A stretch of DNA of 25,199 bases from Phoronis ovalis (taxonomy: Eukaryota > Phoronida > Phoronidae). Below, one piece after another: positions 1 to 24,850 of this stretch. Each line of letters starts with the position of its first letter. Position 1 is the stretch's first letter. The notes under the pieces are model-generated. The model was not told the origin of the DNA. It saw nothing but the letters and a program-made list of their open reading frames with translations, and did no database searches. Where the stretch lies: assembly GCA_028565635.1 (NCBI GenBank), contig JAOXYB010059168.1, positions 1 through 25,199 on the forward strand. The letters are read 5' to 3'. Both the position numbers and the translations under genes were made by a program.

Positions 1-632
1 ATATATATGATAAACACCCAAGTTGAATTCCATGATACCCTGACTATTTAAAGGGGCCGTGATCAGACAATTCCTTATTTGGATTATAGACTAGTTTTAA
101 AACATCCTCTTGAAATTTTTTCCAAAATTATCAAAAGACCAAAAAATGTGTATTAATACACTAGTTCTTCGTCCGGATAATTTAACAGGTTTAACATGTA
201 GTAAAGGATTTATCTTTATATTATAAATTTCATTAGATGTAATGTTATCTTCGTTATATTACACATTTTATTAGATGTAATCTTTGCATGATCACCGGAC
301 TTCTAGATACGCAAGGAAGTTCGCATAATGCGTGTATTTTTTAAGCGACATTTTACGGGTGTTGTCAAAAAAATGTTGATATTTACTTTGCACTCATTTA
401 TAATGATTTATGAAGTAGCAACAATTATCTGATCACAAGGATGCACATATTACAGAAGCTTTTTAATGAAAGTGTTCCGTTGGGTATATTTGGTCGTCCA
501 GTTACATGTGACGTGTACCCTGTCCATCTCGCTTAACTATCTGATTTTATTCGCAGACTGAAGAGAGCATGCCAAGTACAACTAAAAACATTAATCTTTA
601 CATATCTTTTTTCTTCTGAAATAAATACTTGC
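1..632. other. Non-coding, probably insulin-gene intron
   Basis: This stretch lies downstream (minus strand) of the insulin B-chain exon and is presumably the start of the C-peptide intron. I searched the reverse strand for the A-chain cysteine pattern (CC followed by two further Cys) and found none in an open frame, so the A-chain exon should lie left of position 1. A diverged tandem repeat sits at 210-282. Nothing else is recognised. Confidence 0.5.
210..282. repeat. Diverged tandem repeat, two copies of about 36 bp
   Basis: The two units are roughly 210-244 and 245-282. Both begin TTATCTT and end with ATTAGATGTAAT, with an A+T-rich, partly diverged middle. It looks like an old local duplication. 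Confidence 0.5.
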
Positions 633-633
633 C
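627..633 (-). promoter_or_regulatory. Candidate 5' splice site of the insulin C-peptide intron (GC type)
   Basis: On the minus strand AATAG|GCAAGT matches the strict context seen at GC-AG donors, and it would interrupt codon 82 in phase 1, the conserved phase of the insulin C-peptide intron. A conventional GT lies four bases further on (AA|GTATTT, phase 2) and cannot be excluded. The next exon, which would settle the phase, is outside the window. Confidence 0.4.
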
Positions 634-876
634 TATTTGTTGGGAATTATGATCAGTTATGGCAGGTATACTGCTTCGTTTGATACCCGTGTAGAATCCA
701 TTAGGGGCGCAAATGGTCTGTAACATGTCTACTAGTCGTCCACTACATTTCCCCCGTGGCGTTGCTCTCTGTGTCTCTAAAGAACAAAACCTTTCTAATC
801 CACAATATACTGTTCCAAGATGTACACAGGCTATCCACACGAGCACACAGGACAATACTCTTGGTCCCACAGCCAT
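633..876 (-). CDS. ILP: Insulin-like peptide precursor, signal peptide and B-chain exon (partial)
   Basis: This exon encodes the first part of a secreted insulin-family prohormone. From the ATG at 876, residues 1 to about 26 form a signal peptide with a hydrophobic core (LSCVLVWIACVHLGTV). The B chain carries Cys44 and Cys56 in CSGRLVDMLQTIC, with the 12-residue spacing and the Leu-Val of insulin B chains, followed by NGFY. A KR pair at residues 66-67 is the expected convertase site at the B/C junction, and about 15 C-peptide residues follow. An extra cysteine at residue 31 (FCSLETQRATPRGKC) matches the N-terminally extended B chain of molluscan insulin-related peptides. The frame stays open to 598, but splicing is expected first. 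The favoured donor is ATA G|GCAAGT at 633, phase 1 as in most insulin genes; AA|GTATTT at 629 is an alternative. The A chain is absent from the window, so the family assignment rests on the B chain alone. Confidence 0.85.
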
Positions 877-878
877 AC

Positions 879-897
879 CTGAAAGTTATAAATTGTA
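879..897 (-). promoter_or_regulatory. Splice acceptor of the insulin 5' UTR intron
   Basis: Reading the minus strand, a pyrimidine-leaning tract ends in AACTTTCAG, and the exon then starts GT-ATG. The AG is at 880-879 and the ATG at 876. An intron in the 5' UTR just before the start codon is common in insulin genes. It implies that the first exon and promoter lie at higher coordinates. Confidence 0.6.
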
Positions 898-14165: not shown

Positions 14166-14238
14166 TTATTTTTCTGCTGGCTGTAGGAACTGTTCACTAA
14201 AAGCCTTCAGTTCATTATTTAGCCAGTTGGATTTGTTC
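14166..14238 (-). CDS. Mfn: Mitofusin exon 13 (last coding exon)
   Basis: It completes a Lys codon, then adds 23 residues from [13 protein letters not shown] to FLQPAEK and a TAA stop at 14168-14166 (followed at once by TGA). It matches the HR2 terminus of vertebrate mitofusins, NK..WL.SEL..F..Q(Y/F)L. The acceptor is TATTTCAG at 14240-14239. Confidence 0.92.
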
Positions 14239-17200
14239 CTGAAATAGGTACATGAAGTGCAAGTTAATAACAAAAATATTAAGTGCAAATAGTGAAACAT
14301 TTGTATCTATCATAAATCGTAACCAATTTTGCTGCATTGTACCCTAAAAAGGGTGTGGGTGGTTTCTACACTATTACCTCTTTCATTGAGAAGTCTGTTG
14401 AATATTTAATTCAGTAAGATAACATTTTATATATATTTCTCAGTATTAATCAGTTATAATAATACAAGTCTACATGTAAACACAGCTATATAAATAAACA
14501 CAACATAAACTTAAGCCTGGTAAAAATTAAAAAGTTGACCATGCAGCATTTTGTCATTCACAGAATCTCAGAATTTTCACATAACAAATGCTCCTTTTAC
14601 AGACTTGTTTCTGGTCTTGACCTGAAAACACTTCTTGTATAACAAAATTCCAGATTTTGTGGCTAGACTAATATACTGCAACTAAATACAAAATTATACG
14701 CAAAACTAAGGCATTAACATATACTTGGAAATTGTATTTATAAATAGGAGCTAAATCTATATACCAAACAAAAAAAACTAATAATGAAAACTACTCACTT
14801 GCACAGTTTAGCTCTACTCGTTATTTCCTCTAGTTTAGCCGTTTCTTGATCAAGACCTTTTATGTCAGCTTCTAGCTCAGACTTTGCCATGTCAACTTGG
14901 TGACTCAATCGAGCAAATGTTGAAGATAATTCTCTAAGTAATATAAAACAAAACGAATGTACTTATCATGTTAGAAATATTATCATGGTCAAATTTGACC
15001 CCGCAAATAACAAAGATTTCCTAGAACAAAATCAGTAAGTTGCCCCAACGATTTTTCAAAAAAAGAAAAGGAAAACAAAAACCCTAAAGAAGAATTTAGT
15101 AGCAAATTCCACTGTATTATTTATGTGTCTTGAGATCAGTTTTTTTATAACCAAACTTGACGATCAGCAATTACAGGAGTAAAGTATATGTGACAGCAAG
15201 CATAATGTGTTCTGATTATATGAAAGAGTAGGAATATCACTCAGGTCCTAGGGAGAACTGCTAGTCAATAAAAAGCAAGGTTTGGTGTGCCTAAGGACCA
15301 GCACAAAATAATCCAAAAAATGCCCAGACCAGAGTAAGTTATTTTAAACAGCTTTTACTGGCACTTACTGTTGCACTTGGTGACTGCAATTTGCACTAGT
15401 CAGATCTACAATAAGTTTAAGTTTGCTGCCTGCATATTCCACATACTGCCTCTTAAATGCCCGTTCTTTAGCCTTATTTGTCCAAGTTAATCTCTCATAG
15501 AGGTAGACAAGACCATAAATAGCACCACACACAGCTATGACACGCCAACCAGCCACTTTGGCTATCTGCAAGGAGACATTGCATATGATATGACAAAGGA
15601 TATCTATGCCAAAAGCAAGTACAGAATTTATAAAACTATACATTTAATGACTTGTCAAATTTTTGCCACACTTTAGTACTTGAATGAATATACTAAGGGC
15701 TGTTCCACTTTTAGTTGTAGAGAGGAGGAGGAAGGCACTTTAATTTCTAGATGACCCTACCACTTACAATATATTTAATATCATATTGCATACTCTTATA
15801 TGTACATGCATTGATTAAACTCACCACCAATATTTTCTTTTATTGAAGTGCCCCCCCCCCATCCCGCACAAATAAAAGCAGTACAGCCCCAACACAAAAC
15901 TACATTTTTCAATATTGCTCAGGCAACCTACAAACATAGTACTCATTTTATATACTAACATTTAAGCTTGCTTATAAAGGTAACAGGCTATAGTTGCTGC
16001 AGTTGATATCAAAATTTCCCTCAGTAATCTAAGTACTAGTTACCAGTATTTCAACAAATTGGTCCTGTTCATACGAACAAGATCAGCAACCATTTATTTA
16101 ACAAAATGAGCTTCAAGCAGCAACAAATCCAGCTGGTCTGCTTGCCACAAGCCAGTAACTCCCGGCACTGACAGTTCATTTTAAAGAATTTATCACAAAC
16201 TTGAGTGAACATGGGCTCAGTTTTCAACTTGCAGAGTTAAGCCGTTTTTGTTCATTGAGTTCACATCAATGTTCCCAGAGAAAAAGAATGGAAGTTTATA
16301 CTACTGACTACATACCACACCAGTAACAACAACTGTTCCAATGCTGGTAGAAGACATAAGAGAGGGAAATGCTCTCATTAGAGCAACAATCATCTCAGTG
16401 TTGTCTTCAGGGACTATTTCATTACTAGGAGTTTGTGGTGTCATGGGCACAGATCGAGGAATCTAAATGAAAGGAAACAACAAATTGGTTCTATTTTAAA
16501 AATTAAGTAAACCCTCAGTAATATATTATAATATCAGTACTTTTGAAAGTATACACATGACCTAGTTAAATGATGTTCATCAATTCCACCCAAATCAATT
16601 ATGAGCAAGAGCCCCTAGGTTTAACAGCACACCTAATAAATGTCAAGTCCACTAGAGGACAAAATAAGTGAAGCGTACAGCAAAACTTTAAATTAGTATT
16701 GCAAATGGACTGAGTAAACATTTATATCTCCACCCTGAAGGGTGTATATTACCTACTGGGTACATGCCGCCCTGAACAGTGCCAAATTCAACCTTTCCGG
16801 TATAAATATGGGTCACACAGTAAAATTATGTTTGGGAATTTTTTTTGTCTTTCTTGATTACTATTTAGTTTGCAATATACAAAACCAAATGGTAAAGCTA
16901 ATCTTCGATCCAAATTCTAAACTGATCAGGATTTTTGAGGTCAGGCAGCAGGTGTCAACACCAATCAAGACCAAGCACTACCTAAGATCCCCACCTGACT
17001 GGACAATTGGTAACATTCAAGGTAAACTGCAGTGGTTCAGATGAAAAGGCATGCGTAGGAGATAATATTAGTTACTTACAGCATCATTATATCCAATAAG
17101 AGCCACCTTAGCACCACGTTTTCCCAAAAAACGTTGGACTAATGAAGTAATGCCCAAAGAAAATCTAAATTCAATGTCTTCTTGAAAATCTGCACACAAA

Positions 17201-20200
17201 TTTCTACAGTCGAGCCTATAAGCCACTTCGAAATCTCTTCTTGGCATAACACCAACAGTTTGCTGCTTATTTTCATCTGGAAGTATTGCTGTTAATCTCT
17301 CTGCAAATACACAAGAAAAAGATATGAAATTATAAAAACAATATGTTAACATCTCTATCATTATGATCACCCTAACAGTTCAACAAAAAATTTATAAAAA
17401 ATATTTTTAAGTCTGCTGGTTCAATTATCCACTAATTTTACTATATAATAATTTTATAACCACAAAAGGAGTGCTAATTTTTAATAAATTATAGAGGTAA
17501 AACAATTTTATATTTGCTAACTCATGACAATACAATGTATTTACAATGTAATTAAATCTGGGATAAAACACAATTTTGTATCTTTTAAGTATTGCAAATG
17601 TTCAACTATAAAATCCTCTGTGGAACAAATGGATTCCAGCATCACCTAAATGTAACTTTAATTTTTTTGCTTGTAGACATGCATTTTTGTTCTTGGCAAT
17701 GAACTTCAAGATGGTTATCCTCAGCAATGATGACTGGCATTCGGATATTATTAGTTTCTTACCAGTCATTTCCTTTTCTGTGTCCTCTACACCTTGTAAT
17801 AAGGCTGCTGAACACCTAGCTTGCAGATTACGACCTAAACCTTGCTCCACATACAAATGCAACTCCTAGAAATCAACGCTAAACTAAAATTTCCGCAATT
17901 AAACTCAATGTTCATGCTACAACATGCAGGGCACACTAGACATAACTAAGTGTTTAGGCAAATGTACAATTAATACTATGCAAACTTTTTATTAGGGTTT
18001 AAATTTTGAGATATTTGTACCATAATGAAACTCATTCCTGCCAAAACGTTAGGTTGATAAATAAAGTGATGATATCATAACAAAACAGTTGAAGGTCTCA
18101 TTATCCTGCAGACTGCCTAAACGCTTATATATCTACTCCCAAAACAATCACACAATAGGGGTAATAATATATAGCAGTCCAAGGGAAAAGCATTCTCGAC
18201 CATAATATATCCTTGGTCAACTAGCCAAGAATGAATTCCATGTTATGCACCTTAACCAAAGAAAAACATGCAAAGTAAGTTTCCTGGACCAACTGAAACT
18301 AGTTACTACAATGATGAAAGCAAAAAAAACTCATGATCCTATCAGGCACTTGACTTATATACAGCAACACAGCAGTCAGGTATAAAATAAACGCATATCA
18401 GCAATCAGTGTAGCCCTATATATACACTCATAATAAAAAACAAAGGGATTTTCATATGCTGATGTGCATTTGATATTTGCTGCATGTGTCATGTACCTAT
18501 CATATCTTGAGCTATCGATTCCATGACTTTCTTTATAGACGGCGTAAGATGTGACATCAAATTTCGACATAGCCCATCCTCCACATAGTAATGAAGTTCC
18601 TGTATATGTATTCATGGTAAATTAAATGAATTCCTTCATTTACTAGCAAGGATTCAGGTTCATATTAGAACACATGAATTCCATTTCTTCATATCATTTA
18701 GATTTTTAAAACTGTGCTAGGACATCAATGTATATCGACATGTCAGATAGGTGACAAACCTTCACTATATAAGAAGTTAGTTTCACTGAGTATCAGCAAA
18801 TATAATTGAGGTTTATGTGAACAACATCTTTATTTTCATAAGCCAACTTTTCACAAATTTCTATTAACCCAAACTGCTGATGAACAACAAGAAAGTAACA
18901 GCTAGTATACAGAGCAGAGTAACTGTTAGATTACTAATAACCACTACTACTTGACACATACCTTTTTGTAAACAGCAAGCACAAGATAATCGGAATGGAA
19001 TGGCCTATCAAATTCGTCAACTAATATAGACAAACGACGGATTTCCTCATTTAAAGAACGAGACACCTAAAAATGACAAAAATATACATTTTACCAGTTG
19101 CCATTCACAAGCTACAAAAACAATCAATACTTAGATATGTTATAAACTCAAACAAATAAGAGATTTTGTTAATTTATATACAGGTCCAATCTTATTTACA
19201 CAACATTTAACCAAAACTTAGATATGGTAACTCAAACAACTAAGATATTTTGTATTTTATATACAGGTCCAATCTATTTTTACAGCTGGTCTTGTACTGC
19301 AGTTTTGGAGCATTATACAAGCTCATGAATAAAATTCTGTTTTTTTTGTGATGCCCCAACACCAGTATCATGCCATTTCATGAAACAGTTGGTCTTTCTA
19401 AAATATTTTAAATACCATCGAAAAATTGAGATACTGCACATAATTCAATATGCGTTATGAATGATTTTGTATGTAACAGTTTAGTAAAACAATGAGAAAA
19501 TGTGGATTAAATAAAACGCATTACCATAACATTATGACCTAGCGGGGGTATTCAGCAACTCTACAGGAAACCAAAGATACTAAAATGTCTCTAGACTGTT
19601 ATGGCACTGCACTAAACAGCATCGTGCCTGCATTAAGTACAATGTATCAAACCTATATTTTCAGCTGTTTTTATAGGATGTTTAATTCAATTATGATCAG
19701 TAGCAGAATCAGTAAAAGTCTACTGTTTCCTATATATAATCTGAAACTGTTTTAGGTTCATACTTTTTGTATGCCTTTCACTGTTCATTGTTACAGAAAT
19801 GGACAGAAGGAACACAAGAACCAACCTTTGTTTCAACTTGCTCAACCATTTGTTTAATTTTAACTTTGACTTCATCAGTTAGGATGTCCACCTGTCTTTC
19901 CATATAATCCAGCCTGTCACTAGTTTCTTGTCTGCTAGTTATACACTTATGTCTAAAAACACAATCACATATAAACTAGTTTGTTGCATACCTACCATCA
20001 AATTTATTCTCACAAGAAATATTGAATTTGGAAATCACTAAGCTTTACAAGCACTCATTAAAAAGCAATGCAGTAGTACATTTTACAGAGTTTGCTACTA
20101 AATTTATAACAAATGGTTCTTTGAGACTTGCCTTTTATCGAGCGAATTTGAATAAACCGTTTCCATATTATTCTGTAATTCTTCACAAATTGCCTTGCCA

Positions 20201-23200
20201 CGTTGCGTATGCTGTGCAAATTTAGTCTTAACAGCAGACTGACTAATGCATTCCTTAAAATAATCAAATTATTCCATTGCATCAAAATTCGAGAATAATC
20301 CTTTTTGCGTGGCTAAACATTACAAAATTCTTGAATTGTAATACTACACTGAAAAGGGACTTTATTGGAGTATCTCTTGAATACAAGCGACTAAATGAAC
20401 CTCACTGTACAAAATACCTTTTTAAACTGTAAAACAGACAAATCATTTCTTTGACAGAACAATTACAGTATGATTATACATGTACCTCAAACTTTCGTTC
20501 AAAACTGGCAAACTCAAATAATCTCGCTTGGAAACCTTCCTGCAAGGAGCCAGCTGAAATAAATGAGTATTGCACAAATTAAGGAAATTAAAAATAAACT
20601 AAATACCTGTTTTTGCTTTCTTCAAAGTAGTATGAAAATACCCTTATGCAAAAATTTGCCAAACTTTTTAACAGGTAAGGTTTGTTTTCAAGAGTTATTT
20701 CAATTGTTTTTCTTTTATTATTTGAGAACCTTAATGTAGTCATTCTGCTACCTTGTGGGAAGCAATTCTTGTATGCTTGTTAATTTTCAGGAACAACTCT
20801 CCTGTAAAGGGAGCTGAAAAAATATACATCAACATAGATAAAGAAGAAGGCCAAAACAATATTTTGTTTACATACTAGGTGTAGGAGTACCAGCATCCTG
20901 GTTTGTTCTTGAGACAAGTGCCTCACGGGCTGAGACAAAGAATATTCTATCTTCGGATTCTTGTTTTGTATTCACACGCAGTTCATTGGTAAGAAATGCG
21001 GTGTTTCTTTCTAAATGTTGCTGCCTTACCTAAAAAGAAATAAATAGTTCTTTAATAGTTGCTTTCTAACCATTCAGCCAGTGATCCTTTTTGAATAGTA
21101 GGGATTACTTTATTACGGAACTGTACGGCAATTTTGCTCATTTAATTAAGTTGAAAACAGTGACAAAAATACAAACTTTCCATTAAAATGCCTTTAACTG
21201 TGAATATCAGTGGCCACCTTACATATGGGTTACTTCAGTTCAAAAGAAACAAATATTTTGAAAGCTTACACAGAAGTGAATCATAAATGAAACAAATAAC
21301 CACTTCATACTCAGTTAGGCCAAATAAACGGCTGACAAAACTACACTTAAGTTGTGAATTGACTAATGATCATCAGATCCTGACTACTTACACTGACATT
21401 AGGGTTATGGTCTTCAATTCAATAGTGCCAAGTATAAGTGAATAAACAATTTGCAGTGCAATGATTCAAAGCATTGTAGCTGCCTTTTAAAAGGCCATGC
21501 AGTAATCACAATGTTTACCTCATCCATAGACTCTGGTTCCATAGCTGAGGCATCCCATCTATTATTAAGTATGAAGATGTTTGGTTTTGACAATCTGTCA
21601 TTCACTTTAAGAAAAAAATTCTTTTCCTAAAATATTTATTGAAATATATGGTCAAATACACATCAGCAGTGTTATAAAATTAGACAAAACTAAAAACTTA
21701 ATAGATGAAGTGTATAACCATCCAACAGTAAATTCACTTACATTTTGGTAAAACAGTAGAAACCCTCCCGGGAACAAAGTCTCCAACGGAAGTAATGTGT
21801 TACAAATATACGTTGTATAGGATGTCAGTTCTTAAGTACGACGCCCCTTTCTGGTATAATCGTACTTCAAACAAGACTGCGAGCTCCATATCAGATCCAT
21901 GTTGCCCAGACGCAAGCAATTTAGTACTGTGATTCGGCTCTTGCAAATATTTAGCACTTGGAAATATATCAAACCAAATAGTTCCTGCGGTGCTTTTTTT
22001 CAATATTGTTGACATCTAGGCTATCAGATGATCAAGTGCGTGCAGTGATTCAGTTGAGGCATAAGAGATTTTATTCGTGTTTGAAGACAGCAAGGAATGA
22101 AGACGTAAAAGGTAAATTGTCGTGCACAATGTTGTTTTATTCAAATTCTGTTAAAGTTAATTAGGTACGCTTGCAACCTTTTTGTAGGAAATTTATTCCT
22201 CTTTCCAACGATACCAATATTGTTTATTCGTTGCTTCTAAGTCCCCCAAGGTACCTAATTAACTATATTGGTTCGGTGAGTTTCAGTTTAGTCATTTTCT
22301 TGTGATTTTTGTCCTTGCTCACAAGTTAAGTTCTGTGAATGTGTTTGGTATTTTTTCCGATTGCCATGTTTGTCTGTGGCAATCTCAAGTTTCTTTTATT
22401 TTGCCAGAAAGCACAACAACTACAAAATATACCACTATTTCTTAATCTGTCAAAGCAAGCACTTGCTACTAGTTATTGACATCATAGTGCATGCTACCAC
22501 GTGCAGTTTTGCACATTTCAAAAGTAGTTCTTGGTGGCTGTTGAATCTTTACATTCAGTATATTAATACAAATAGATATTACACAGAATATTTTCATTGT
22601 CTTTGTTTTAGTTTTTAGTGTTGTCCTTTTCAGCCATAAAGATTTGTACCAGAAGTATTAAATTAGCAAACATTGTTTGGCAGAAAATGTATATTTTATT
22701 AAATTGTTTAATATAAAACTAATGCATTATTCAAACAAGACCGATGCTTTATTTTCGTTTTGCAGGCATTGAAACATTTTTGAAAATATCAAAGAAATGT
22801 TCCAAAAACAAGAAAAGGAAAAAACAGTCAATAAATATTATATTTATAACTCCCCCACGGTTTCATTTCGTGGAGTTGTACACAATAATTAATTTGCAAC
22901 AGCTAAATAAAGTGACTACTGTATTCAATGACTGGGGAAAATGTAAATTTTCTTGTACTGTAAATAAATTTTCTGATCAATGTATACCCTATGTGGTGTG
23001 GAAAAAGTTCCTTTGCAATTTTCTACGGCCAAGACAATTGTTATCAGTTGGCATGAGGTAATATTTATGTTAATAAATAACAACTAAATATTGTATCTGT
23101 TTTCTTTTTGGATTTGTAATACTTTAATTTATTGCCAACAATTCATCGAAGCAAATTGATTTACAGCTTACAAATATAATATTGTTACAATATTAACACT

Positions 23201-24850
23201 ACAACAATATTTTTGCCATCTATACAAGTATATTTGAAGATATGTATTCCTCAATGACATACAGTTTATCTACAATACAGTTCTCTAATATTTTAACACA
23301 AGGTATATATTTTGTTTAGCCAGTATTGATTGCTATATCATTTGTAATTCAATCATATACTGTTACCCATTAAAATGTGTTGGTTGACTAAATACTTTTT
23401 TTTTTTTTTTTTCAATCTTGTTTGCTACCCATCATATTCTTTTACAATATCAGATTTCACAAAATTGTTCAAAATATTGGTTTCAATTTCAATTTTTTAC
23501 TTTCTAGCCAAAGATTTGTAAAAATATGATTGTACACTATTGAGTAGTACTTTGAACTGGAAATATCTCATACTAATATGCTGTGTTTCCAATTTAAATT
23601 GTCCTCCAACAAATAATTCTCAATAATGTCTGATGCAGTAGTACATTTTCTAATGTAAGTTTGTTCATTATACATGAATCTCACTGGTCTTGGTATCTGA
23701 AGTCTATTGTCTGGTTTAATTTTAACTATATATATTATTGAAATTTAATTCTGGGATAACATATGTTTAACTTAACCATTTTGAAAATAAAATATAATTT
23801 ATATTTCTCACATTACATCTTTATTATGCCACAAAACAATAGGCATATCAATTATCCCACTTTTATCACACATTTCTACTATTGTCCATAAACCAGCACA
23901 ACTATGGAGTTTAGGTGATCTACAAAAAATATAAAATGAAACATGACATTTTTTTATGATGAACTGACCATATTAGAATTGGCTAACAAAATTTGTGCAT
24001 AACTGCATGTATTCAAGTAAAAAAGATAAAACATTTCATTGGCAATCTGTACAATTTTTTTACTGCTTGAATTAGCAACAAAATTCAGACTTGTCTCAAG
24101 TATTAAAGAACTAACCTGACAGTATACAAAGGCTTCACACAGATCTTCTAATCTTCTCGACAAATATTTTATTTTTTTAATTAGTAGAAACAAATTAAAT
24201 ATAGATCATGTCGACGTTATAGTGTTTTTAATAGCGCAACAGAGATAGTTGCATCAATGTGCTTGTTGATTTTGGAATTTGCACTTTTTCAAGGGGAGTT
24301 AATTTACGTATGCATATATGGGAATGGTGATTTTATAGCTGAGAAAGTAACAGAAAATAATGCTTTAGATTCATAACATTTGATTTATTGCTGTAAACAC
24401 TAATAAAACCTTTAAATATATTTTTGAATCGATATGCAGTTATTTATATCTGTCTGCGATACCTCTTTTAATAGTAGATTCGTCCCACGTGACATATATA
24501 GAACTTTTGCACTGGCGGGATTTCTGGGCGACGTCACTCGAGTACTACAGAACTGGCGCGAATTTTTAGTATGTGTCTGCGTTTATCCAGCGTTATTAAC
24601 TGTCGAACTGTGCTATATCTTTATCGCGGATGTAAGAGGAGTTGTGCGGCGGATTTCTACTGAAAGTGATTATGTCATTCTTTAGGTCTAAGTAAAGTTA
24701 TATTAAAGAGTTTAAGACTACATTGCATAAAGAATATTTACTGTCTGCATGAGAGTCGATTCAGCGTTAGCCACCAGAACAAATACATCGGCATCTAGGC
24801 AATGTTTATCAATCCACCCATCCAGGTCAGGAGACACATCAATACCAGGA
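14166..24850 (-). CDS. Mfn: Mitofusin, 5'-partial, 14 exons with one alternative pair
   Basis: This outer-mitochondrial-membrane dynamin-family GTPase tethers and fuses mitochondria. The exons join in frame to 555 residues (numbered here from the first complete codon) and align along their length with animal mitofusins. The order is: the end of the GTPase domain (SPGID after G3; the G4 motif NNRWD in exon 2), helical stalk and HR1 (exons 4-7), the alternative stalk exon, [15 protein letters not shown] and RFLG (exon 9), two adjacent membrane segments (exons 10-11), [18 protein letters not shown], then the C-terminal HR2 coiled coil ending FLQPAEK. The start codon, P-loop and G2 lie upstream of the window. 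All boundaries are GT-AG except the donor of exon 5, which is GC. No frameshift or stop interrupts the coding exons, so the gene looks functional. Invertebrates often have a single mitofusin, so no MFN1 or MFN2 assignment is made. Confidence 0.95.
14799..14933 (-). CDS. Mfn: Mitofusin exon 12 (HR2 coiled coil)
   Basis: It encodes [20 protein letters not shown] and on to SRAKLC, the heptad-rich HR2 helix that follows the membrane segments and dimerises during tethering. It enters in phase 2 (CA|A, Gln) and leaves in phase 2 (AA|G, Lys). The donor is AA|GTGAGT. Confidence 0.93.
15369..15565 (-). CDS. Mfn: Mitofusin exon 11 (second membrane segment and juxtamembrane)
   Basis: It holds [20 protein letters not shown] (hydrophobic, the second half of the membrane anchor), then [20 protein letters not shown] and SANCSHQVQ. 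These are among the most conserved mitofusin signatures. The acceptor is CTTGCAG and the donor CA|GTAAGT. Confidence 0.96.
15851..15860. repeat. Poly-C run (C10)
   Basis: Ten consecutive C on the plus strand, in the mitofusin intron between exons 10 and 11. Its length is likely to vary. Confidence 0.8.
16316..16462 (-). CDS. Mfn: Mitofusin exon 10 (first membrane segment)
   Basis: 49 codons, phase 0 at both ends. A proline-rich linker ([20 protein letters not shown]) leads into [20 protein letters not shown] and TVVVTGV, corresponding to the ...SLTSRTSMG...GG start of the membrane region in vertebrate mitofusins. The donor is GTG|GTATGT. Confidence 0.94.
17080..17300 (-). CDS. Mfn: Mitofusin exon 9 (stalk)
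   Basis: It completes a Glu codon (G|AG) from either alternative exon and encodes 73 residues, including [30 protein letters not shown] and ALIGYNDA, which align directly with the vertebrate [15 protein letters not shown]...RFLG segment. The donor is GCT|GTAAGT. Confidence 0.96.
17763..17865 (-). CDS. Mfn: Mitofusin exon 8b (alternative stalk exon, canonical-like)
   Basis: 103 bp, entering in phase 0 and leaving in phase 1. It encodes [20 protein letters not shown] and on to EKEMT. It is closer than its partner to vertebrate sequence (GLGRN followed by RCS.A). The donor ACTG|GTAAGA is strong. It has the same length and phases as exon 8a, so only one of the two can be used without shifting the frame. 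Confidence 0.92.
18497..18599 (-). CDS. Mfn: Mitofusin exon 8a (alternative stalk exon, divergent)
   Basis: 103 bp, entering in phase 0 (ACAG|GAA) and leaving in phase 1 (ATA G|GTACAT). It encodes [20 protein letters not shown] and on to SIAQDMI. It matches exon 8b at 13 of 34 residues, nearly all in the first 14, and lacks the RCS motif. It is fully open with intact splice sites, which argues against a dead copy. The donor is weaker than that of exon 8b. Confidence 0.85.
18962..19066 (-). CDS. Mfn: Mitofusin exon 7 (stalk)
   Basis: 35 codons, phase 0 at both ends: [35 protein letters not shown]. It aligns with the vertebrate EEIRRLSVLVDDY..DFHPSP.VL.VYK segment. The donor is AAG|GTATGT. Confidence 0.95.
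19130..19284. repeat. Diverged direct duplication of about 70 bp inside an intron
   Basis: Copy 1 is about 19130-19200 and copy 2 about 19218-19284. Both start CTTAGATATG, share AACTCAAACAA and TATATACAGGTCCAATCT, and end TTTACA. They sit in the intron between exons 6 and 7. Confidence 0.8.
19826..19952 (-). CDS. Mfn: Mitofusin exon 6 (HR1 region)
   Basis: It completes an Arg codon and adds 42 residues: [42 protein letters not shown]. It is a charged, heptad-like helix corresponding to the EERQDRLKFIDKQL...RIKQITEEVE stretch of vertebrate HR1. The donor AAG|GTTGGT is unusually weak, but the reading frame and homology fix it. Confidence 0.93.
20132..20253 (-). CDS. Mfn: Mitofusin exon 5, with GC splice donor
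   Basis: It encodes [20 protein letters not shown] and [20 protein letters not shown], aligning with vertebrate [16 protein letters not shown]. The exon ends AAA AG|GCAAGT, so the donor dinucleotide is GC; joining AG to the A of exon 6 gives Arg and keeps the frame. No GT nearby gives a workable junction. Confidence 0.93.
20486..20553 (-). CDS. Mfn: Mitofusin exon 4
   Basis: A short 68-bp exon: it completes a Thr codon, then [20 protein letters not shown] and FE, matching the vertebrate [21 protein letters not shown]. It leaves in phase 0 at GAG|GTACAT. Confidence 0.94.
20876..21029 (-). CDS. Mfn: Mitofusin exon 3 (end of GTPase domain)
   Basis: It encodes [20 protein letters not shown] and [17 protein letters not shown], matching the vertebrate [12 protein letters not shown] segment at the end of the GTPase domain. 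A short variable linker (NQDAGTPTP) follows. It ends in phase 1 at CCT A|GTATGT. Confidence 0.95.
21519..21626 (-). CDS. Mfn: Mitofusin exon 2 (GTPase G4 motif)
   Basis: 36 codons, phase 0 at both ends: [40 protein letters not shown] is the guanine-recognition G4 motif of mitofusins. The acceptor is TTTTAG and the donor GAG|GTAAAC. Confidence 0.96.
21866..22015 (-). other. Unassigned open frame with possible donor
   Basis: From an ATG at 22015 the frame reads [20 protein letters not shown] and continues through [18 protein letters not shown], then meets a possible donor GAA|GTACGA near 21866; without splicing it stays open to 21800. Its composition is more protein-like than most frames here, but I recognise no family. 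It lies in the same orientation as the host gene, so it could be an alternative first exon, a nested gene or chance. Confidence 0.18.
22155..22264. repeat. Small inverted-repeat element of 110 bp
   Basis: AGTTAATTAGGTAC at 22155-22168 is matched by a perfect inverted copy at 22251-22264, and CTTG/CAAG continues the pairing just inside. It is non-coding between the repeats and could be a miniature element. It has TTAA near each end but no clear target-site duplication outside. Confidence 0.6.
23396..23412. repeat. Poly-T run (T17)
   Basis: Seventeen consecutive T on the plus strand within the large mitofusin intron. I saw no retroposon body attached to it. Confidence 0.8.
24478..24660. promoter_or_regulatory. 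CpG-dense, promoter-like patch in mitofusin intron
   Basis: I count 15 CpG dinucleotides in about 180 bp, far above the surrounding A+T-rich DNA. It contains CACGTGAC (E-box), GACGTCAC (CRE/ATF-like), and TGGCGGGA and GGCGCGAA (E2F-like). It also coincides with an open frame on the plus strand (24434-24685) that has no recognisable domain. It could be an internal promoter or a first exon of an unrecognised gene. Confidence 0.3.
24742..24850 (-). CDS. Mfn: Mitofusin first visible exon (GTPase G3 and following)
   Basis: It starts with the last base of a Ser codon, then [20 protein letters not shown] and [16 protein letters not shown], matching the vertebrate [25 protein letters not shown] stretch. 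The Asp of the G3 motif and most of the Ser codon are on the preceding exon, outside the window. The acceptor is ATTCCAG and the donor ACA|GTAAAT. Confidence 0.96.

What the first reader, a model, noticed from the sequence alone, without database searches (positions are those of the whole stretch)
17763..18599. Mutually exclusive exon pair in mitofusin
Two tandem exons of exactly 103 bp, both phase 0 in and phase 1 out, encode the same stalk segment between HR1 and the membrane anchor (ELHxYVExGLxRNL start). Both have intact splice sites and open frames. Because 103 is not a multiple of 3, using both or neither shifts the frame, so mRNA would carry one or the other. The first 14 residues are mostly shared while the rest has diverged strongly, giving two stalk variants from one gene. 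I know of no description of such a switch in animal mitofusins. If expressed, it could give a single-copy invertebrate gene two fusion activities, much as vertebrates use MFN1 and MFN2.
Basis: partly seen in the sequence, partly recalled or inferred. Interest (0 to 1): 0.8.

Follow-up and report, generated by a model that had tools for sequence, protein, structure and literature searches.

The report
Swappable stalk exon in invertebrate mitofusin
A mitochondrial fusion gene of an unnamed invertebrate carries two interchangeable versions of one small exon, and limpets, a sea hare and an oyster show the same kind of pair, so these animals seem able to build two forms of one fusion protein from a single gene.

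Summary
Confirmed. The minus strand holds a mitofusin gene (first exons off the contig). After the HR1 helix lie two tandem, homologous 103-bp exons, 8a (18599-18497) and 8b (17865-17763): both phase 0 in and 1 out, open, with AG/GT sites. Using both, or neither, gives an early stop. In a profile scan 8b scores 88.0 and 8a 46.6 bits; the next of 50,196 positions scores -4.5. Neutral decay left what 8a keeps in 0 of 20,000 simulations.

The new point is breadth. Four mollusc species have same-length isoform pairs differing only inside this segment. Two sea-slug gene models hold both exons in the same order. Alternative-type segments, labelled by me, occur in 26 of 75 database proteins outside arthropods and deuterostomes, 0 of 38 arthropods and 0 of 7 deuterostomes. 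Both types keep the helix core; the alternative lacks a near-universal glycine.

Most likely this is a real mutually exclusive exon pair that swaps most of one stalk helix. Whether 8a shares one origin with mollusc alternative exons is unresolved; no RNA from this species was available. Ten literature searches listed no description.

The parts
18497..18599 (-). Exon 8a, alternative type, 103 bp, phase 0 in / 1 out; residues ELHYYVEDGLCRNLMSHLTPSIKKVMESIAQDMI
   Evidence: profile score 46.6 bits
17763..17865 (-). Exon 8b, standard type, 103 bp, phase 0 in / 1 out; residues ELHLYVEQGLGRNLQARCSAALLQGVEDTEKEMT
   Evidence: profile score 88.0 bits
17866..18496 (-). Intron between 8a and 8b, 631 nt
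   Evidence: from exon borders
18962..19066 (-). Upstream flanking exon (E9), ends in phase 0
17080..17300 (-). Downstream flanking exon (E11), entered in phase 1
14166..24850 (-). Mitofusin gene as far as present: exons 24850-24742, 21626-21519, 21029-20876, 20553-20486, 20253-20132, 19952-19826, 19066-18962, 8a or 8b, 17300-17080, 16462-16316, 15565-15369, 14933-14799, 14238-14166 (stop); 5' exons off the contig
   Evidence: Pfam Fzo_mitofusin 216.2 bits on the 8a version; best match Lineus longissimus 67% identity over 99%

Best explanation
8a and 8b are a functional mutually exclusive exon pair. Each productive mRNA carries one of them; transcripts with both or neither hit an early stop and would be lost to nonsense-mediated decay. 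The choice swaps 34 residues, most of one predicted helix (459-505 in the Patella models) between HR1 and the membrane anchor. Both versions keep the hydrophobic face (positions 2, 6, 10, 14, 18, 22, 26, 33), E7 and N13, so both should pack as the same helix. Alternative-type exons lose the near-universal glycine at position 11, often gain proline or glycine at 20-21 or glycine at 16, and add hydrophobic residues on another face. I infer that the switch moves the flexible point of this helix and changes an exposed face, altering how the stalk bends or pairs in docking and fusion while GTPase, HR1, anchor and HR2 stay the same. Shown: the pair, its frame logic, isoform pairs in molluscs, conservation. 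Inferred: use in this species, removal of wrong products, the mechanical effect.
For: Exact pair with matching phases and intact sites. Profile scores 88.0 and 46.6 bits against -4.5 for the next position. Neutral decay leaves such a copy in 0 of 20,000 runs. Four within-species isoform pairs of equal length differ at 19-24 residues, all inside the segment. Plakobranchus and Elysia models hold an a-like stretch then the b-like one, the same order as here. Seven alternative-type proteins come from sources whose longest contig is 2.6-3.9 kb, fitting spliced transcripts since this gene spans over 10.6 kb. Close-species pairs: alternative exon divergence 0.082 against 0.069 for the rest, 5 pairs. 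Helix core kept, G11 0 of 28 against 93 of 94. Segment inside one helix in both models.
Against: No RNA from this species. Window 8a shares 14, 11, 10 and 7 of 34 residues with alternative exons of four molluscs and 9, 11, 10 and 10 with their standard exons, and its a-minus-b score of +7.4 is reached by 18% of permutations of its last 20 residues. At larger distances alternative exons change 1.6-1.9 times faster than the rest of the protein. No exclusion device was found: the intron between is 631 nt and intron-intron pairing is no better than shuffles. Model pTM is only 0.52 and 0.49.
Confidence: 0.85

Rival explanations
1. The pair is functional, but exon 8 was duplicated independently in several lineages, so 8a here is not the same exon as the mollusc, annelid or nemertean alternative exon.
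For: 8a is no closer in identity to mollusc alternative than to mollusc standard exons. In the 62-row segment tree the five annelid and nemertean alternative segments form their own group (99/98) among standard ones, and 0 of 200 bootstrap trees make all alternative segments one group; window 8a with window 8b as one clade is not rejected (p-AU 0.146). A mutually exclusive pair in mrp-1 is reported to have arisen independently in several lineages (PMC7434440, passages).
Against: In the same tree 8a lies inside a supported group of 23 alternative segments, the other 22 from the mollusc clade (95/89), and one clade for all 28 is not rejected (p-AU 0.328). 8a stands upstream of 8b as in two sea slugs and has cysteine at position 11 as 19 of 28 alternative segments do, itself included.
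Confidence: 0.5
2. 8a is a decaying, unused duplicate or an assembly artefact.
For: 8a lies much further from the profile than 8b (46.6 against 88.0 bits) and has the weakest acceptor tract of the 14 exons (8 of 17 pyrimidines). No RNA was seen.
Against: 0 of 20,000 neutral simulations keep what 8a keeps. A recent assembly duplicate would be near-identical, but the exons share 54/103 bases. Molluscs have the same kind of pair.
Confidence: 0.06
3. 8a is mainly a regulatory 'poison' exon: adding it next to 8b makes an early stop and lowers mitofusin output.
For: Including both gives an early stop; the 8a acceptor tract is weak.
Against: A poison exon needs no coding constraint, yet 8a keeps an open frame, the helix core and matching phases. 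Isoforms with the alternative segment alone stand in mollusc databases.
Confidence: 0.06

Closest known systems
Mutually exclusive tandem duplicated exons in general (for example the human set in PMC9741552)
   Same: Adjacent homologous exons of one length; isoforms identical save for one homologous stretch (PMC9741552, passages).
   Different: Mitofusin, MFN1 and MFN2 have 0 occurrences in the main text of that paper; here the pair lies in a mitochondrial fusion GTPase of an invertebrate.
coq-2 exons 6a/6e in helminths, annelids and molluscs (PMC7434440, passages)
   Same: Mutually exclusive homologous exons in a mitochondrial gene, in annelids and molluscs among others.
   Different: Different gene and pathway: an enzyme choosing rhodoquinone or ubiquinone. 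A link to oxygen is untested for mitofusin; coq-2 of this genome could not be searched.
Human MFN2 splice variants ERMIN2 and ERMIT2 (PMC10757993, passages)
   Same: Splice forms of a mitofusin gene with different roles.
   Different: They lack GTPase and coiled-coil 1 in full or in part and sit on the ER; here two full-length forms exchange one segment.
Vertebrate MFN1/MFN2 paralogues
   Same: Two mitofusin forms in one animal (recalled).
   Different: Two genes differing along their length, against one gene with one exchanged helix; likeness of function untested.

Membership tests
Mutually exclusive tandem duplicated exons | Adjacent homologous exons | tested here: met
   54/103 bases, 13/34 residues; profile 88.0 and 46.6 bits against -4.5 for the next position
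Mutually exclusive tandem duplicated exons | Same length and phases, intact splice sites | tested here: met
   103 bp each, phase 0 in / 1 out, AG and GT
Mutually exclusive tandem duplicated exons | Both or neither breaks the frame | tested here: met
   early stops in both cases
Mutually exclusive tandem duplicated exons | Transcripts carry one or the other in this species | not testable with these tools
   no RNA data; relatives have isoform pairs and short-contig alternative forms
Mutually exclusive tandem duplicated exons | A device that enforces exclusion (crowding, splice-type clash, RNA pairing) | tested here: inconclusive
   intron of 631 nt; both exons GT-AG; pairing reached by 9, 22 and 52 of 60 shuffles
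Mitofusin | Fzo_mitofusin C-terminal region | tested here: met
   PF04799 216.2 bits, residues 393-551
Mitofusin | Complete dynamin-type GTPase | tested here: inconclusive
   only the end of the domain is on the contig; Dynamin_N 18.5 bits, under the 27-bit cut-off
One ancestral lophotrochozoan alternative exon | All alternative exons form one clade | tested here: inconclusive
   not one group in the free tree or in any of 200 bootstrap trees; one clade not rejected, p-AU 0.328; 34 columns

The most novel reading that the evidence does not exclude
The mitofusin switch arose once, before molluscs, annelids, nemerteans and this lineage split, and has been kept since. It moves the flexible point of a stalk helix (loss of the conserved glycine, a new break, a second hydrophobic stripe) and so gives each animal two fusion modes from one gene. 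As coq-2 has a mutually exclusive pair in molluscs and annelids tied to anaerobic metabolism, the switch might belong to a mitochondrial programme for low oxygen.
Probability: 0.25. Interest if true: 0.85.

Novelty: new member of a known kind. Interest (0 to 1): 0.64.

Why it matters
Mitofusin is the core machine of outer-membrane fusion, and how its membrane-proximal stalk drives fusion is unsolved: the 8 solved sequences found by sequence search do not cover this segment, and a review describes the second helix bundle by prediction and analogy (PMC6317495, passages). Two natural versions of one helix in an otherwise identical protein make its role directly testable. It would also mean that many invertebrates have two mitofusin forms without a second gene.

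Tried and rejected
Decaying duplicate: not supported. Second mitofusin gene: none seen, the 13 scored matches lie on this contig. Intron-intron pairing as exclusion device: energies equalled or beaten in 9, 22 and 52 of 60 shuffles; the 12 inverted repeats have no chance control and were not pursued. Region searches of the protein database with the 8a segment (1 candidate, no hit) and the Haliotis segment (only itself) gave nothing; they do not show absence. Species: the mitochondrial contig reads well with the invertebrate code and has genes on both strands; in the mitofusin tree the window pairs with unnamed P0025 (0.98), then Lingula and P0006 (0.87), while the best single match is the nemertean Lineus. 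Only a lophotrochozoan-like animal can be claimed. The fold search (Patella standard form) listed mitofusin, BDLP and other dynamin structures and added nothing on this helix. The composition profile and tRNA scan were not used. An HMM scoring of segments failed and was replaced by BLOSUM62 scores against seeds.

Full report
What is there. The window is a whole contig of 25,199 bases. Its minus strand carries a mitofusin gene from 24850 down to the stop ending at 14166. All introns between the 14 exons in the model have GT-AG borders except one GC-AG intron after the exon ending at 20132. The first GTPase exons lie beyond the contig end. The joined 555-aa protein (8b version) is 67% identical to a Lineus longissimus mitofusin over 99% of its length; the 8a version matches Pfam Fzo_mitofusin with 216.2 bits. 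The 13 scored own-genome matches to the 8b version lie on this contig.

The pair. Exons 8a (18599-18497) and 8b (17865-17763) are each 103 bp, enter in phase 0, leave in phase 1, are open and have AG and GT at their borders. They share 54/103 bases and 13/34 residues, 11 of them in the first 14. Using both gives a stop inside 8b; using neither gives a stop two codons into E11. A profile from 109 distinct database segments scores 8b 88.0 bits and 8a 46.6; the next of 50,196 positions scores -4.5. Mismatches by codon position are 18, 10 and 21 of 34. In 20,000 neutral simulations from 8b to the same distance, 0.59% kept the frame and both splice dinucleotides and none kept these plus the helix core, E7 and N13; 0.45% kept 13 or more residues. 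The criteria were set after seeing 8a, indels were not modelled, and all change was put in one copy.

Relatives. A protein search gave 2,258 proteins with E up to 1e-20 among 7,996 scored candidates; the best 120 were listed and used. The database is clustered at 90% identity, so one isoform can hide the other and a missing isoform means little. Four within-species pairs of equal length (Patella vulgata, Patella caerulea, Aplysia californica, Saccostrea echinata) differ at 23, 23, 24 and 19 residues, all inside the 34-residue segment. The P. vulgata, Aplysia and Saccostrea pairs bear the names isoform X1 and X2, and Lineus and Tubulanus are listed as isoform X2. Models of Plakobranchus (P0051) and Elysia (P0074, shortened) hold an a-like stretch followed by the b-like one, the order seen here; I read them as models that fused both exons.

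Distribution. 118 of the 120 proteins gave a 34-residue segment; the two fused models did not. I labelled 26 as alternative type from five seed pairs and the residue at position 11. 21 of these score from +71.4 to -1.4 (four are seeds). Five (Tubulanus -8.4, P0046 -11.0, Lineus -19.2, P0056 -20.2, P0005 -21.2) lie next to P0084, an arthropod-clade segment, at -21.8, so their label leans on the missing G11 and the G11 count is partly circular for them. On the tree without this exon, alternative segments are 21 of 56 rows in the mollusc clade, 3 of 10 in the annelid clade without Owenia, both named nemerteans, 0 of 38 in the arthropod clade and 0 of 7 deuterostomes. Clade names rest on the named rows. 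Seven alternative-type proteins (P0005, P0046, P0056, P0062, P0065, P0070, P0099) have longest contigs of 2.6-3.9 kb, which fits spliced transcripts; this is inferred from length alone.

Selection and origin. In close pairs the alternative exon diverges like the rest of the protein (0.082 against 0.069, 5 pairs of 26 rows); in wider bins it runs 1.6-1.9 times faster. The standard exon, over 30 chosen rows, runs 0.9-1.3 times the rest. In a tree of 62 chosen segments, window 8a lies in a supported group of 23 alternative ones (95/89); the five annelid and nemertean ones form another (99/98) among the standard set. Labels need 2 changes (shuffled mean about 20.6), and 0 of 200 bootstrap trees give one. 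One clade for all 28 is not rejected (p-AU 0.328), nor for 27 without window 8a (0.236), nor for window 8a with 8b (0.146). 8a has a long branch (1.4) and there are only 34 columns. By identity 8a is no closer to mollusc alternative exons (14, 11, 10, 7 of 34) than to their standard ones (9, 11, 10, 10), and its +7.4 preference is reached by 18% of tail permutations. One origin or several cannot be decided. Stating these results made me lower the odds of the single-origin reading from 0.30 to 0.25.

Structure. Models of the Patella vulgata isoforms (mean pLDDT 78.2 and 74.8, pTM 0.52 and 0.49) put the segment, residues 468-501, in one helix 459-505 in both, with 10-residue block pLDDT of 82-90. 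It follows the long helix 334-442, which I take as HR1, and precedes the helices where the membrane anchor is expected (recalled). With low pTM the packing is not established. The 8 solved sequences found match the query only up to residue 388 or near the C-terminus. Over 28 alternative and 94 standard segments (window and Plakobranchus included): hydrophobic residues at 2, 6, 10, 14, 18, 22, 26 and 33 in at least 93% of both; N13 in all; E7 in all but one; G11 in 0 of 28 against 93 of 94 (the exception is Helobdella); G16 in 21 against 9; proline or glycine at 20 or 21 in 12 against 0; proline anywhere in 9 against 0; hydrophobic residues at 4, 5, 11, 15, 29, 31 and 32 in 46-71% of the alternative type against 0-19%. 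Window 8a has P20 and C11. Hence the proposal that the helix is kept while its flexible point and one face change. This is inference.

Splicing control. The 8a acceptor tract is the weakest of the 14 exons (8 of 17 pyrimidines; 8b and three others have 10). The 8a donor (6 of 9 to consensus) is like most others, and 8b has 7 of 9. The 631-nt intron between the pair argues against crowding. Pairing between introns is no better than shuffles. The frame rule alone would remove wrong products, if decay acts.

Literature. Ten searches of the open PMC library listed no paper that, by title and abstract start, describes mutually exclusive exons in mitofusin. Several lists were cut (for example 15 of 5,793), and subscription papers and bioRxiv preprints are mostly missing. 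I saw passages of six papers and none in full. The isoforms already stand as database entries, so the data are public even if undescribed.

Verdict. The functional difference and the age of the switch remain open.

Noticed in passing
P0051 (Plakobranchus ocellatus), P0074 (Elysia crispata): Public gene models that appear to include both exclusive exons at once; P0051 is also named 'wap four-disulfide core domain 1'.
   Followed up: partly
window 598-885 (-): ORF with a signal-peptide-like start and a stretch that by eye recalls an insulin-like B chain; the Pfam scan gave no family at E up to 1.
   Followed up: partly
window 18150-18296: 147-bp stretch in the 8a-8b intron, 97% identical to another contig (G000:C586:8131-8277); probably a repeat.
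   Followed up: no
window 20126-20132 (-): GC-AG intron: the exon ending at 20132 is followed by GCAAGT.
   Followed up: no
G000:C1114 (L004, L005): 15.7-kb mitochondrial contig: ORFs that I read as nad1, nad6, cob, nad4L, nad4, nad5 on + and cox3, atp6, nad3, nad2, cox1, cox2 on -, with the invertebrate code (gene names other than cox1 by eye).
   Followed up: partly
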